DNA of 64,000 nt from Bacillota bacterium (lineage in GTDB: Bacteria > Bacillota > Clostridia > Peptostreptococcales > Anaerovoracaceae): assembly GCA_017443515.1 (NCBI GenBank), contig JAFRXM010000054.1, positions 1 through 64,000 of the forward strand. Direction: 5' to 3'. The position numbers and the translations under genes are program-made. Below the pieces are notes generated by a model, which was not told the origin of the DNA, ran no database searches, and saw only the letters and a program-made list of their open reading frames with translations. Positions 19,325-48,189 of the stretch are shown here, in pieces. The number at the start of each line of letters is the position of its first letter. The stretch's first letter is position 1.

Positions 19325-19351
19325 GGTGGAGAGGGACGGTTCTCCTCCACC
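19325..19351 (+). repeat. Palindromic repeat copy A (GGGACGGTTCT core)
   Basis: A 27-bp element with 7-bp complementary ends GGTGGAG and CTCCACC and the core GGGACGGTTCT. Identical copies lie at 29901-29927 and, inverted, at 19465-19491. A one-mismatch copy lies at 46748-46774. It resembles REP-type elements of Clostridia. Confidence 0.85.
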
Positions 19352-19464
19352 GTTATAGCTGCGGGTGACGCCAGGAGGGGCACCCACGCCCTGAGCATTT
19401 CAGCGAAGGGATGTGGGGAGATGTCCTGGCGGCAGGACCCGCTGCAATATCAATACATTGATCT

Positions 19465-19491
19465 GGTGGAGGAGAACCGTCCCTCTCCACC
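19465..19491 (-). repeat. Palindromic repeat copy B (inverted)
   Basis: The exact reverse complement of copy A, 113 bp away in the cbiP-cbiC gap. A partial second GGTGGAGAGG unit adjoins it at about 19490-19503. The pair could fold into one long cruciform or hairpin, like a small MITE. Confidence 0.85.
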
Positions 19492-28912: not shown

Positions 28913-30118
28913 TCAAGTCCTTTCTCTATTATTCCAGATTTCTGAAAGCTCCGCGGCACCTGCGCTCTGGCAGAGGATGCCGCCGAGGCCTTCGTGGTTG
29001 GTAAAACAAATGTATTCTATCTGAACGTCGTCCGGGACTTTGCGAAGAAGCGTGGCTTCTATGCGTTTTCCCAGTATCTTAAGCGTTTCCTTAAGTAATC
29101 CCGCGTCTTTTATGATGTCCAGCGCGGCGTCTGTTGTGGCACAGGGAAGCACTTTTTTTAGGGTATCAAGATCTGCGCCTGCTTCAAGAGCGCAGGCAAG
29201 AAGCGTCTCCATGCGTCCGTCGCCTCCGGACGAATGCGTGAAGGTCTGCCCTATCCCAAGCTTGACCATCTTGCCTATGTGCCCTACGATGAGTATGCGC
29301 TTAAAGCCGCACTCCACCGCGGAGTTGATGGCGTCGCCTATGAAGTTGGACATCGCTATGCACTCGCTCACATCCAGTCCCAGTACGTCCCTGGAAAAAT
29401 CGCGGCCATAGTTGCCCGGAACCAGGAAGATGTCCGTCCTGCCCTTGGCGGCAAGCTGGCGTATCTCCACCTTTGTGGTATCCACCAGGGCCTGGTTGCT
29501 CATGGGCTCCACTATGCCTGTGGTCCCGATGACGGAGATACCGCCTATTATCCCTATGCGCGGGTTGAAGGTCTTGTTGGCGAGTCTTTCGCCCTCGGGA
29601 AGGCTTATGATGACCTTAAGGCCGCCGCTGTAGCCGCACTTTCTGCAGACCTCAGAGAGCTCCTCTTTTATCATGCGGCGCGGCGTGGAGTTGATGGCCG
29701 CGTTGCCAACAGGCTGGTCCAGCCCGGGCTTTGTGACCCTTCCTACACCGAAGCCGCCGTCTATTACTATGCGGCTTCCCGGCTCGGCCTTTTCAAGCTC
29801 AGATTCCTCGCAAAAGCTGACCTTCGCGTACACCGGCATGCCGTTCGTAACATCCGGATCGTCCCCCGAATCCTTCCTCACAGCGCAGGAGACCCAGCTT
29901 GGTGGAGAGGGACGGTTCTCCTCCACCGGGCTGCCTTCAGTAATATCCAGAATATCCAGGTGTAGCATCTCCCCAGCCGGGGTCATAAGGTCTACCTTTT
30001 CGACCCTCTCCCCGGACAGCAGCATCATCGCCGCAGCCTTGGAAGCCCCGGCGGCGCACGATCCTGTGGTGTAGCCGCACCTCATTATTTTTCCGTTTAC
30101 GTACCTTGTAAGTTCCAT
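28913..30118 (-). CDS. cbiD: Cobalt-precorrin-5B C1-methyltransferase with a repeat-encoded insertion
   Basis: I start at the ATG ending at 30118 (MELTRYVNGKIMRCGYTTGS), giving 401 residues, because upstream codons lie inside the riboswitch hairpin. RCGYTTGSCAAGASKAAA (residues 13-30) is the CbiD signature, and KDSGDDPDVTNG follows near residue 82. Between them, residues 65-73 (VEENRPSPP) are encoded exactly by palindromic repeat copy C, which adds nine codons without breaking the frame. Later blocks are typical (GGISVIGTTGIVEPMS, VGHIGKMVKLG). It is the first gene of the long cbi operon. A GGAG lies 15 bp upstream in the hairpin arm, so riboswitch folding may hide it. Confidence 0.95.
   Translation of the reverse strand: MELTRYVNGKIMRCGYTTGSCAAGASKAAAMMLLSGERVEKVDLMTPAGEMLHLDILDITEGSPVEENRPSPPSWVSCAVRKDSGDDPDVTNGMPVYAKVSFCEESELEKAEPGSRIVIDGGFGVGRVTKPGLDQPVGNAAINSTPRRMIKEELSEVCRKCGYSGGLKVIISLPEGERLANKTFNPRIGIIGGISVIGTTGIVEPMSNQALVDTTKVEIRQLAAKGRTDIFLVPGNYGRDFSRDVLGLDVSECIAMSNFIGDAINSAVECGFKRILIVGHIGKMVKLGIGQTFTHSSGGDGRMETLLACALEAGADLDTLKKVLPCATTDAALDIIKDAGLLKETLKILGKRIEATLLRKVPDDVQIEYICFTNHEGLGGILCQSAGAAELSEIWNNRERT
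29901..29927 (+). repeat. Palindromic repeat copy C inside cbiD
   Basis: An exact 27-bp copy of the GGGACGGTTCT-core element. It lies in frame in cbiD and encodes nine residues on the minus strand. Identical intergenic copies show it is mobile or recombining rather than ancestral cbiD sequence. Confidence 0.9.
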
Positions 30119-30159: not shown

Positions 30160-30281
30160 TGCACGCAAAAAGCTGCTGTTCAGCTTCCCGGTGTCCGCAG
30201 GAAGGCTGATATCCCGGCACCCGACTTTCACGGCAACGTACTTGCGAGGGAATTGCACCCTACTTTCCCGTTCTGTATTCG
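30160..30281 (-). ncRNA. Cobalamin riboswitch controlling the cbiD operon
   Basis: The minus-strand leader carries a GGGTGCAATTCCCTCGCAAG stretch, then GTTGCCGTGAAAGTCGG and TGCCGGGATAT, matching the B12-box layout. A CCTGCGGACACC segment near 30190 and the hairpin entry follow. It is closely similar to the leader at 37090-37207, which indicates a duplicated control region. It should repress the cbiD to cbiC genes when adenosylcobalamin is abundant. Confidence 0.85.
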
Positions 30282-30286
30282 ATTTG

Positions 30287-37089: not shown

Positions 37090-37207
37090 CGCTAAAAAAG
37101 CTTTTGTTTCTCCGGTGTCCGCAGAGAAAACACATACCCGGCATTCCGACTGTCACGGCAACGCACTTGCGAGGGATTTTCACCCTTCTTTCCCGTTTGG
37201 TTTTCGC
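37090..37207 (-). ncRNA. Cobalamin riboswitch controlling the cbiL operon
   Basis: The minus-strand leader contains AAGGGTGAAAATCCCTCGCA, then GTTGCCGTGACAGTCGG and ATGCCGGGTAT, and a CTCTGCGGACACCGGAG segment. It is highly similar to the cbiD leader, including the terminator stem and the promoter. It controls cbiL, the exporter, the NEAT-like protein, the dehydrogenase and the importer. Confidence 0.88.
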
Positions 37208-37382: not shown

Positions 37383-37586
37383 AAAACTTGATCGGAAGCA
37401 GAGGCGTGGAAGTCGGGTGAGAATCCCGCGCAAGGCCGTTACTGTAAGCCGCCGTAAAAAGCGGTCAAGCCAGATACATCCCTGCTTTGGCCATAGGAAA
37501 CTATGGTGTGTTCAGCTCTGCGGACTACCGGAGCAATGGATATCCACTCAGAGGCCAACCTCTTAAGCTGCTTATCTTGTTTCTTC
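37383..37586 (+). ncRNA. Cobalamin riboswitch controlling the CbiK/importer operon
   Basis: A more classical B12 aptamer than the other two. It has GCAGAGGCGTGGAAGTCGGG, GTGAGAATCCCGCGCAAGGC, CGTTACTGTAAGCCGCC and CAAGCCAGATACATCCCTGC between 37398 and 37484. A CTCTGCGGACTACCGGAG segment (about 37515-37532) and an intrinsic terminator follow. Its sequence class differs from the two minus-strand leaders, suggesting a separate origin. Confidence 0.93.
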
Positions 37587-39442: not shown

Positions 39443-39467
39443 TCAGTTACTGCAAAATTATACTCGG

Positions 39468-45995: not shown

Positions 45996-46733
45996 CTAAG
46001 ACAGCCACGCCGTGATGGGTATCGCTGCGGCCATGCCCACGATCAGGCTTATCGGCAGCGCGTAATCCGCTATCCAGCGTTTGCCGGTCTTCTTCATCAG
46101 AAGGCCGCATACCGCCATCACTGCCGCCGCGATAAAGAACACGCACACCGGTATGAAGCCAGTAAAGTCGCCCTTCGTGACGTTAAGCACATCGCAGAAT
46201 ACGAAGCCCACGAAAGCTGATATCATGCCTATGAACATGGAGTTCTGGAAGATCTCTGCCCACTTTTTATCGCGCTTTTCGAGGTTGATGACGCCGGTGA
46301 GGAGCTTCTTGCCGATCAGAGGAACCAGCCAGATGCCCACCAGTATCGAGATCGTCATGACCCCTGCTATTGTCACGTACTGCGTGGCGGTAAGGCCGCT
46401 GACCTGCCCGAAGGAGAGCCCCATGGCACTTTCCGCGTTGCTGGCTGCGATGGTCTCATAGGAAAGGTTACCGACGACCGACAGCCTAAGCCACGGCAGC
46501 GGCAGGCCCAGGTCCTTGGAAAGAGTTATGACGCTGATGACGATAGCAACAGCAGGCGCGATGGTAAAGATCGCGGCTGTGCGCGCTATGCGTCTGAGCT
46601 TGGCGTTGTCCATTCCAAGCTGCTTTGCCCTCTTCCAGGCCTTCACCAGGAAGAAGACCGACTGCGCCAGCACCACCGCGACGATGACGCCGGCCAGCAC
46701 GAACAGCACCGGACTGTTGATAGAAAAATCCAT
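45996..46733 (-). CDS. DUF5058-family membrane protein
   Basis: A 245-residue integral membrane protein with about six helices. The N-terminus MDFSINSPVLFVLAGVIVA, the FLVKAWKRAKQLG loop and the SVVGNLSYETIAASNAESAM segment fit DUF5058. Function is unknown in the family. It has a good GGAGGTG ribosome site, preceded by palindromic repeat copy D. It is adjacent to a YfcC-type carrier and the M20 peptidase. Confidence 0.8.
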   Translation of the reverse strand: MDFSINSPVLFVLAGVIVAVVLAQSVFFLVKAWKRAKQLGMDNAKLRRIARTAAIFTIAPAVAIVISVITLSKDLGLPLPWLRLSVVGNLSYETIAASNAESAMGLSFGQVSGLTATQYVTIAGVMTISILVGIWLVPLIGKKLLTGVINLEKRDKKWAEIFQNSMFIGMISAFVGFVFCDVLNVTKGDFTGFIPVCVFFIAAAVMAVCGLLMKKTGKRWIADYALPISLIVGMAAAIPITAWLS

Positions 46734-46747
46734 ATTTCACCTCCGTT

Positions 46748-46774
46748 GGTGGAGAGGGACGGTTCTTCTCCACC
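46748..46774 (+). repeat. Palindromic repeat copy D
   Basis: The 27-bp element with one mismatch (CTTCTCC in place of CTCCTCC), in the gap between the YfcC-type gene and DUF5058. It lies 5' of the DUF5058 ribosome site. Confidence 0.8.
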
Positions 46775-46779
46775 GAAAA

Positions 46780-48189
46780 TCAATAGTTTATCGCAAGCCC
46801 AAATAGCAGCAGCGCGCAGGTCAGCACCAGATTAGCCAGCTGGAACTTCCAGGCCCACTTGAACCATCTGGTATAGCTCACATCTGCGAGCCCCAGGCTT
46901 ATAAGAAGGGCCGCGTTGGTCGGATAGAATACGTTCGAGAAGCCGTCGCCGAAGGCAAAGGCCAGTATGCAGAGCTGCGCTGAGATCCCGAAAGCCTGCG
47001 CGATCGGAACTATCAGCGGTATGAGCATTATCGCCTTGGCAGAACCCGAAGCGATGAAGAAATTCATCACGAGCACTATGAGATAAATGAAGAGCACCAC
47101 GCACCAGCGCGGCATGCCTGACGCCGCCCCCACTGCCCAGCCAAGCAGCAGGTCTATGACGCCGGCTTCGGTAAGCGTGTACTTGATAGACGCCGCCATG
47201 AGTATCATCAGGACCGCGGGAAGTATGCTGACAAGACCTCGCCAGAAGCTTTTTAGCATAGCGCGGCCGGGCATCCCGGAGGCCTTTACGGAAGCTATGC
47301 CCGCGGCCAGGAAAGCCAGCGCCACTATTATCATGGTGTAGTCCTGAAGGAAGGTCAGGAACGCGGAGCAGAGCACTATCACTATGCCCGCGCCGAGTAT
47401 TATCGCAAACAATCTCAGGCCTTTTGCAAGCTTTTCAGAGGATGAAAGCTCGCTGTCTGGATCTTCGGCTGACTGGCCGGAAATCCCGGTTTCATTCCCT
47501 TCCAAAGCGTCCGCAGAACGCCGGCCTGCAGCCTCCACCTTCTTTGCGTGCGCGCGGATGAACAGAAGAAGCAGCGGATAGATAAGCGCGAACGACAATA
47601 TCCTCATCCAGGCACCCGAAAACATCGGAAGACCAGCCAGTTTTTGCGCCACGCCTACGGTGAACGGATTGAACACGCCCGAAGCGAAGCCGCACCCCAC
47701 CGCCAGCATGCTCATGGAAAGCCCTGTAAGCCTGTCCCAGCCGAGTTTTACGGCCAGGGCGACAACTATAGGCACCAGCGGAACGCACTCCTCAAACGAG
47801 CCGATAAGGGCTCCCATGGCCATGAAGAAAAGTACCACTACAGCCATGAGTTTATAGCGGGTCTGAGAATAGCGCCGCGAGATGACCGACAGCATGTAGC
47901 GCATAAGCCCGCTGTCGTCCAGCATGGCAAAGATCCCGCCTATGACGAGAAGGAATATAAGGACCGCGATAAGCGTGCCGTTGCCCTCCGCGCCAAGCAC
48001 CAGCACGGGCGAAAGTATCCACTTCCAGAACGGTATGCCGTTTCCGGTAAAGCTCAGCGCGTATGCTATCACCATCAGCACGAAAATGACCGCTATGGAT
48101 GTTATGAACGACCTGACGCTGATGTTAAGACTGCCTTTGTTTCCGCTCTTTTCAGACATTTTGCCGCCTCGGTTTTGTTGCTTCGACAC
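46780..48189 (-). CDS. YfcC-family (DcuC-like) membrane carrier
   Basis: A 469-residue protein with about twelve helices. It resembles YfcC proteins, a DcuC-related group annotated as basic amino acid or C4-dicarboxylate carriers. Typical blocks are GIPFWKWILSPVLVLGAEGN near residue 50, SFEECVPLVPIVVALA near 130, GCGFASGVFNPFTVGVAQ near 164 and FIASGSAKAIMLIPLIVPIA near 390. A charged cytoplasmic loop is present near residues 215-255. The ATG at 48159 is an alternative start. It heads the unit leading to DUF5058 and the M20 peptidase, so it may import the peptidase's products or substrate. Confidence 0.85.
   Translation of the reverse strand: MSKQQNRGGKMSEKSGNKGSLNISVRSFITSIAVIFVLMVIAYALSFTGNGIPFWKWILSPVLVLGAEGNGTLIAVLIFLLVIGGIFAMLDDSGLMRYMLSVISRRYSQTRYKLMAVVVLFFMAMGALIGSFEECVPLVPIVVALAVKLGWDRLTGLSMSMLAVGCGFASGVFNPFTVGVAQKLAGLPMFSGAWMRILSFALIYPLLLLFIRAHAKKVEAAGRRSADALEGNETGISGQSAEDPDSELSSSEKLAKGLRLFAIILGAGIVIVLCSAFLTFLQDYTMIIVALAFLAAGIASVKASGMPGRAMLKSFWRGLVSILPAVLMILMAASIKYTLTEAGVIDLLLGWAVGAASGMPRWCVVLFIYLIVLVMNFFIASGSAKAIMLIPLIVPIAQAFGISAQLCILAFAFGDGFSNVFYPTNAALLISLGLADVSYTRWFKWAWKFQLANLVLTCALLLFGLAINY

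What the first reader, a model, noticed from the sequence alone, without database searches (positions are those of the whole stretch)
29901..29927. A REP-like palindrome inserted in frame inside cbiD
The 27-bp element is identical to intergenic copies near 19.3-19.5 kb and adds exactly nine codons (VEENRPSPP) between two conserved CbiD blocks without breaking the frame. The element's length is a multiple of three and it is open in this frame. Protein-embedded repeats are rare, so this is a clear case of a small mobile palindrome creating protein sequence in a metabolic enzyme.
Basis: seen in the sequence. Interest (0 to 1): 0.65.

Follow-up and report, generated by a model that had tools for sequence, protein, structure and literature searches.

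The report
REP palindrome inserted in CbiD protein
A small mobile DNA palindrome has jumped in frame into a surface loop of a vitamin B12 biosynthesis enzyme in an uncultured gut (probably rumen) Clostridia bacterium; relatives carry different palindromes in the same loop and other proteins carry them too, so this repeat family repeatedly adds short peptides to working proteins.

Summary
The 27-bp palindrome at 29901-29927 lies in frame in cbiD (28913-30118, minus strand), matches two intergenic window copies exactly, and belongs to a family with 142 core copies in this 1.94-Mb genome. The loop it enters is exactly 34 residues long in 65 of 65 parseable distant CbiD proteins and 44 here: a net gain of ten residues, not nine. 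The genome holds one intact REP-associated tyrosine transposase (RAYT) gene, flanked by inverted copies of this same palindrome type. The case is not isolated: at least six other genes here (MutS, Fmt, ABC-F, RNase M5-like, FkbM-type, an FAD-dependent protein) carry in-frame copies; four gained the same peptide, DKGTVLCH. Two congeners carry their own, different palindromes in the same CbiD loop, and one also in the same linkers of RNase M5 and FkbM. Best reading: a RAYT-dispersed REP family that survives inside genes only where it stays in frame in a tolerant loop. In-frame REPs are known (Rickettsia RPEs; PMC3733652). What looks new is the constant-core, variable-stem REP class tied to these transposases across Clostridia, and repeated use of the same protein loops.

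The parts
29900..29928 (-). Type-A REP palindrome inside cbiD, read on the coding (minus) strand as P-VEENRPSPP; core GGGACGGTTCT at 29909-29919 on the + strand
   Evidence: loop +10 aa versus 65/65 distant CbiD
28913..30118 (-). cbiD, cobalt-precorrin-5B C1-methyltransferase, 401 aa, open across the insertion
   Evidence: TIGR00312 391.5 bits (cut-off 200), PF01888 321 bits
19325..19351 (+). Exact intergenic copy, left arm of a 167-bp composite element
19465..19491 (-). Exact intergenic copy, right (inverted) arm of the same composite element
46748..46774 (+). Fourth copy, 1 mismatch, in the gap between gene calls 45996-46733 and 46780-48159

Best explanation
The element is a REP (repetitive palindromic element) of a family dispersed by a REP-associated HUH tyrosine transposase. 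One copy inserted into cbiD at the tip of a beta-hairpin, added 30 bp (10 residues), and was kept because it stayed in frame and the loop is exposed and tolerant. The same process has hit other tolerant loops and linkers in this genome, and the same loops in sister species. Shown: in-frame copy, shorter loop in distant relatives, repeat family, intact transposase gene flanked by the same repeat type, other in-frame copies, and species-specific copies at the same sites. Inferred: that this transposase moved the copy, that CbiD still works, and that the same-site copies are independent insertions rather than an old insertion overwritten by newer REPs.
For: Loop length: 34 aa in 65/65 distant CbiD, 44 here; congeners range from 34 to 58. 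Family: 142 cores, 51 full copies at <=3 mismatches. Transposase at C12:39489-40259, NF047646 REP_Tyr_transpos 80.9 bits against cut-off 80, flanked by inverted type-A copies at 39446 and 40402; weak match to solved TnpArep 4er8. Own in-frame copies in MutS, Fmt, ABC-F, FkbM, RNase M5-like and an FAD protein, absent at those sites in most congeners. Strong depletion in genes: 14 of 134 cores inside gene calls against a fraction of 0.877 expected. G003 cbiD holds that species' own REP type (17 cores in the genome); G009 cbiD holds a 71-nt inverted pair like the other G009 copies nearby. The G009 REP type found in its RNase M5 matches the repeats flanking one of its transposase genes. REP-poor congeners G002, G006, G008 have no Y1 transposase hit. 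AlphaFold model puts the insert between strands 57-61 and 75-81.
Against: No empty-site allele of the same species is available. The congeners differ by about 15-20% in protein, so exact junctions cannot be read. Two congeners without a recognisable REP there (G002 +13 aa, G008 +6 aa) also have longer loops, so the loop may have been expanding before REPs arrived. Own types B and C have no transposase of their own in this 91% complete genome. G010 is REP-rich but showed no transposase hit in a 71% complete assembly.
Confidence: 0.88

Rival explanations
1. One ancestral REP insertion in the cbiD loop before the species split, then overwritten in each lineage by local REP turnover or gene conversion, and lost in G006.
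For: G003 and G009 start the core at the same codon after LDI/LDM. All close congeners except G006 have a longer loop. The FkbM copies in own and G009 share site, strand and frame.
Against: Stems differ and match each species' own family. The own cbiD copy lies several codons downstream and reads the opposite strand to G003. The own copy is identical to the family consensus, which suggests recent arrival.
Confidence: 0.25
2. The loop palindrome is kept because it does something, as an RNA hairpin in the cbiD transcript or as a useful peptide.
For: The RNA hairpin folds at -13.6 kcal/mol, better than all 200 shuffles. Own MutS, ABC-F, Fmt and FkbM all gained the same peptide in the same frame and strand.
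Against: Any palindrome folds this way. Peptides and strands differ among species at the same site. Close relatives without it have intact CbiD.
Confidence: 0.08
3. Chance similarity or assembly artefact: ordinary loop sequence that happens to match the repeat.
For: The genome is a fragmented assembly of 73 contigs.
Against: A 27/27 match, 0.00 expected; the contig is 93.9 kb; independent genomes show the same kind of insert.
Confidence: 0.01

Closest known systems
Rickettsia palindromic elements (RPE; Ogata et al. 2000, as summarised in PMC10969869)
   Same: Short palindromes inserted in frame in unrelated protein genes, adding peptide to proteins kept as open frames.
   Different: RPEs there are ~150 bp with a conserved encoded peptide and common in Rickettsia genes; here the unit is 26-29 bp, mostly intergenic, and a tyrosine transposase gene flanked by the repeat is present.
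Intragenic GTAG/CGTC REPs (Di Nocera et al. 2013, PMC3733652)
   Same: REPs inside ORFs without frame loss, often in DNA repair genes (here MutS and the UvrC tail); different REPs at about the same site in recB of two Xanthomonas species.
   Different: No GTAG tag at the foot of the stem was seen here; instead a constant GGGGACGGTTCT core with family-specific stems. CGTC repeats are reported as not linked to transposase genes; these are.
TIRYT / TIRtrons (PMC3733652) and TnpAY1 subclass 2.1 (PMC6006769)
   Same: HUH tyrosine transposase with NHIH, FQ and YVHWNP motifs and a longer C-terminus, flanked by inverted repeats; reported TIR motif GGGGWSAS is close to GGGGACGG.
   Different: Repeats here are short palindromes in high copy (142 and 378 cores in two genomes), whereas subclass 2.1 was reported without REP-like sequences and TIR families as moderately abundant; position 7 is G, not A.
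REPINs (PMC3116915)
   Same: Inverted REP pairs as a unit, e.g. G009 cbiD and own RNase M5 copies.
   Different: Different sequence class and host group; most own type-A copies are single.

Membership tests
REP elements (general) | 20-40 bp palindrome in high copy, mainly intergenic | tested here: met
   29 bp, 142 cores; 14 of 134 inside gene calls against a fraction of 0.877 expected
REP elements (general) | Associated tyrosine transposase gene flanked by the repeat (REPtron) | tested here: met
   Inverted type-A copies at C12:39446 and 40402 around the transposase gene; NF047646 over cut-off
GTAG-class REPs | GTAG/GTGG tetranucleotide 0-2 nt 5' of the stem foot | tested here: not met
   Bases 5' of the type-A stem are not conserved beyond -1 Y
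TIRYT / subclass 2.1 transposases | NHxH, FQ and YxHxNP motifs, C-terminal extension with HTH | tested here: inconclusive
   Motifs and 257-aa length fit; HTH only as sub-threshold Pfam hits; no tree against reference subclasses
TIRYT / subclass 2.1 transposases | Flanking inverted repeats with GGGGWSAS | tested here: inconclusive
   Flanking core is GGGGACGG, 7 of 8 positions agree
RPE-like protein-coding palindromes | In-frame insertion in unrelated genes with insert-free homologues | tested here: met
   CbiD, Fmt +9 aa against five congeners of equal length, others
RPE-like protein-coding palindromes | Host protein expressed and functional with the insert | not testable with these tools
   Needs expression and assay

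The most novel reading that the evidence does not exclude
A REP class of Clostridia has a constant 12-base core and stems specific to each transposase gene, is spread by transposases of a subclass previously reported to lack REPs, and lands again and again in the same few protein loops, so that sister species grow different peptide inserts at the same place in the same enzymes.
Probability: 0.4. Interest if true: 0.7.

Novelty: new variant of a known kind. Interest (0 to 1): 0.52.

Why it matters
It is a clean natural experiment on how mobile DNA adds sequence to working enzymes. The canonical loop length is fixed (34 aa in 65 of 65), the donor family and a candidate transposase are known, and several sister species carry different inserts at the same site. 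It also gives a testable REP family and transposase pairing in a group and transposase subclass where REPs were reported missing.

Tried and rejected
Literature search for the core string found only unrelated papers. No Rfam family at gathering score in 18-38 kb. Simple codon-usage gene calling missed the transposase gene itself, probably because of its different composition, so the gene calls are approximate. A consistent target-site rule was not found: net insert is 30 bp in cbiD and 27 bp in fmt for 29- and 26-bp palindromes, too few cases. The same-gene recurrence of G009 (3 of 7 genes) was scored only with assumed per-gene rates of 2% and 5%, so its probability is a rough guide. The link between core count and transposase in 34 class genomes (15 of 18 core-rich against 7 of 16 core-free) rests on genomes picked by core count.

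Full report
Observation. Shuffled sequence gives none. The host gene is a full-length CbiD by TIGR00312 and PF01888. An AdoCbl-II riboswitch-like hit just under the gathering score lies upstream at 30209-30285, which fits a B12-regulated operon.

Is it an insertion? Between the conserved TPxG and SGDDPD blocks the distance is 34 residues in all 65 distant CbiD proteins that could be parsed out of 80 fetched (14 fetched loci could not be parsed), 44 here and 58 in the MAG RUG13409. Contig length (29414) and the shared cbiD sequence indicate that RUG13409 is the same genome as handle G009. Close congeners read 34 (G006), 40 (G008), 47 (G002) and 50 (G003), counted from the alignment. The net gain here is ten residues. 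The palindrome proper is 29 bp, since the bases just outside are Y on one side and R on the other across copies, and it is open in all six frames.

The repeat family. The core GGGACGGTTCT occurs 142 times in the 1.94-Mb genome against 0 for the reversed control. Copies fall into types that share the core but differ in the stem: A (GGTGGAG), B (GTGACA), C (TGAAAA) and minor ones. Copies are strongly depleted from genes: 14 of 134 lie in gene calls where 88% would by random placement.

The transposase. One Y1 transposase gene is present. Its 257-aa product scores 80.9 bits to NF047646, REP-associated tyrosine transposase (cut-off 80), and weakly matches the solved TnpArep 4er8. Inverted type-A copies flank it, so the cbiD copy belongs to the type linked to this gene. 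In the congener G009, five Y1 loci are each flanked by inverted repeats with the same core and their own stems. REP-poor congeners G002, G006 and G008 have no Y1 hit. Across 34 genomes of the class, many related transposase genes have the same arrangement, and the 12-base core is found in 142 of 391 class genomes, up to 239 copies.

Not an isolated case. In this genome in-frame copies also sit inside MutS, Fmt, an ABC-F-type ATPase, an FkbM-domain methyltransferase, an RNase M5-like TOPRIM protein (107.5 bits, just under the 110.65 cut-off) and an FAD-dependent protein, and at the C-terminus of UvrC and two others. MutS, ABC-F, Fmt and FkbM all gained DKGTVLCH from type B in the same strand and frame. 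Fmt shows a clean +9 residues against five congeners of equal length at that point.

Same loops in sister species. G003 has 17 cores in its genome and one of them, of its own species type TTGACATAGGGGACGGTTCTCTGTGTCAA, is in the same CbiD loop. G009 has a 71-nt inverted REP pair there. G009 also has REPs in the same linkers of RNase M5 and FkbM, and further copies in an RlmL-like methyltransferase (tandem) and DusB. The concatenated tree joins G003 to the G002/G004/G006/G008 group (support 92), while the placement of own, G009 and G010 is poorly supported. I favour repeated insertion in tolerant loops over one old insertion, because stems, strands and positions differ, but the second is not excluded.

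Mechanism. Shown: the copies, their frame, their absence in relatives, and the linked transposase gene. Inferred: single-strand transposition by the HUH transposase, then selection that removes intragenic copies except in-frame ones in exposed loops. The AlphaFold model places the insert in a turn between strands 57-61 and 75-81 with moderate confidence.

Known context. In-frame REPs were described in several species, with many in repair genes and with different REPs at about the same site of recB in two Xanthomonas (PMC3733652); RPEs in Rickettsia are the best known case (PMC10969869). A survey of TnpAY1 proteins reported in-frame REPs inside transposase genes and no REP-like sequences for subclass 2.1, which it equates with RAYT group 1 and, probably, with the TIRYTs whose terminal repeats carry GGGGWSAS (PMC6006769, PMC3733652). 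The transposase here has the subclass 2.1 motifs NHIH, FQ and YVHWNP, but no tree against reference groups was built.

Verdict. The event is a good example of a known kind; the constant-core, variable-stem repeat class and the reuse of the same loops make it a new variant.

Noticed in passing
window 19325-19491: The two exact intergenic copies are the arms of a 167-bp composite element with a conserved inner sequence of about 113 bp; five such elements were aligned (others at C55:9181, C67:62796, C71:75092, C72:1684), two with the inner part apparently in the other orientation.
   Followed up: partly
window 30209-30285 and 37133-37204, minus strand: AdoCbl-II riboswitch-like hits at 33.3 and 36.1 bits (gathering 36.5), the first one upstream of cbiD; a Cobalamin-like hit at 37383-37499 (+) at 26.5 bits (gathering 31.5).
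   Followed up: no
L303 (G010 mutS): The MutS linker that carries a type-B REP in this genome carries a different insert with CHPERSEGSSEG in G010, which resembles the translation of another common palindromic repeat.
   Followed up: no
L272:2040-2150 (G009, RlmL-like): Tandem in-frame REP units give the repeated peptide DIGDGSLSPFST close to the NPPY motif of an rRNA methyltransferase-like protein.
   Followed up: partly
L324-L353: In many families of the class, transposase genes of this kind are flanked by inverted GGGGACGGTTCT repeats with gene-specific stems.
   Followed up: partly
G000 genome, REP types B and C: These REP types have no transposase gene of their own in the 91% complete genome.
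   Followed up: no
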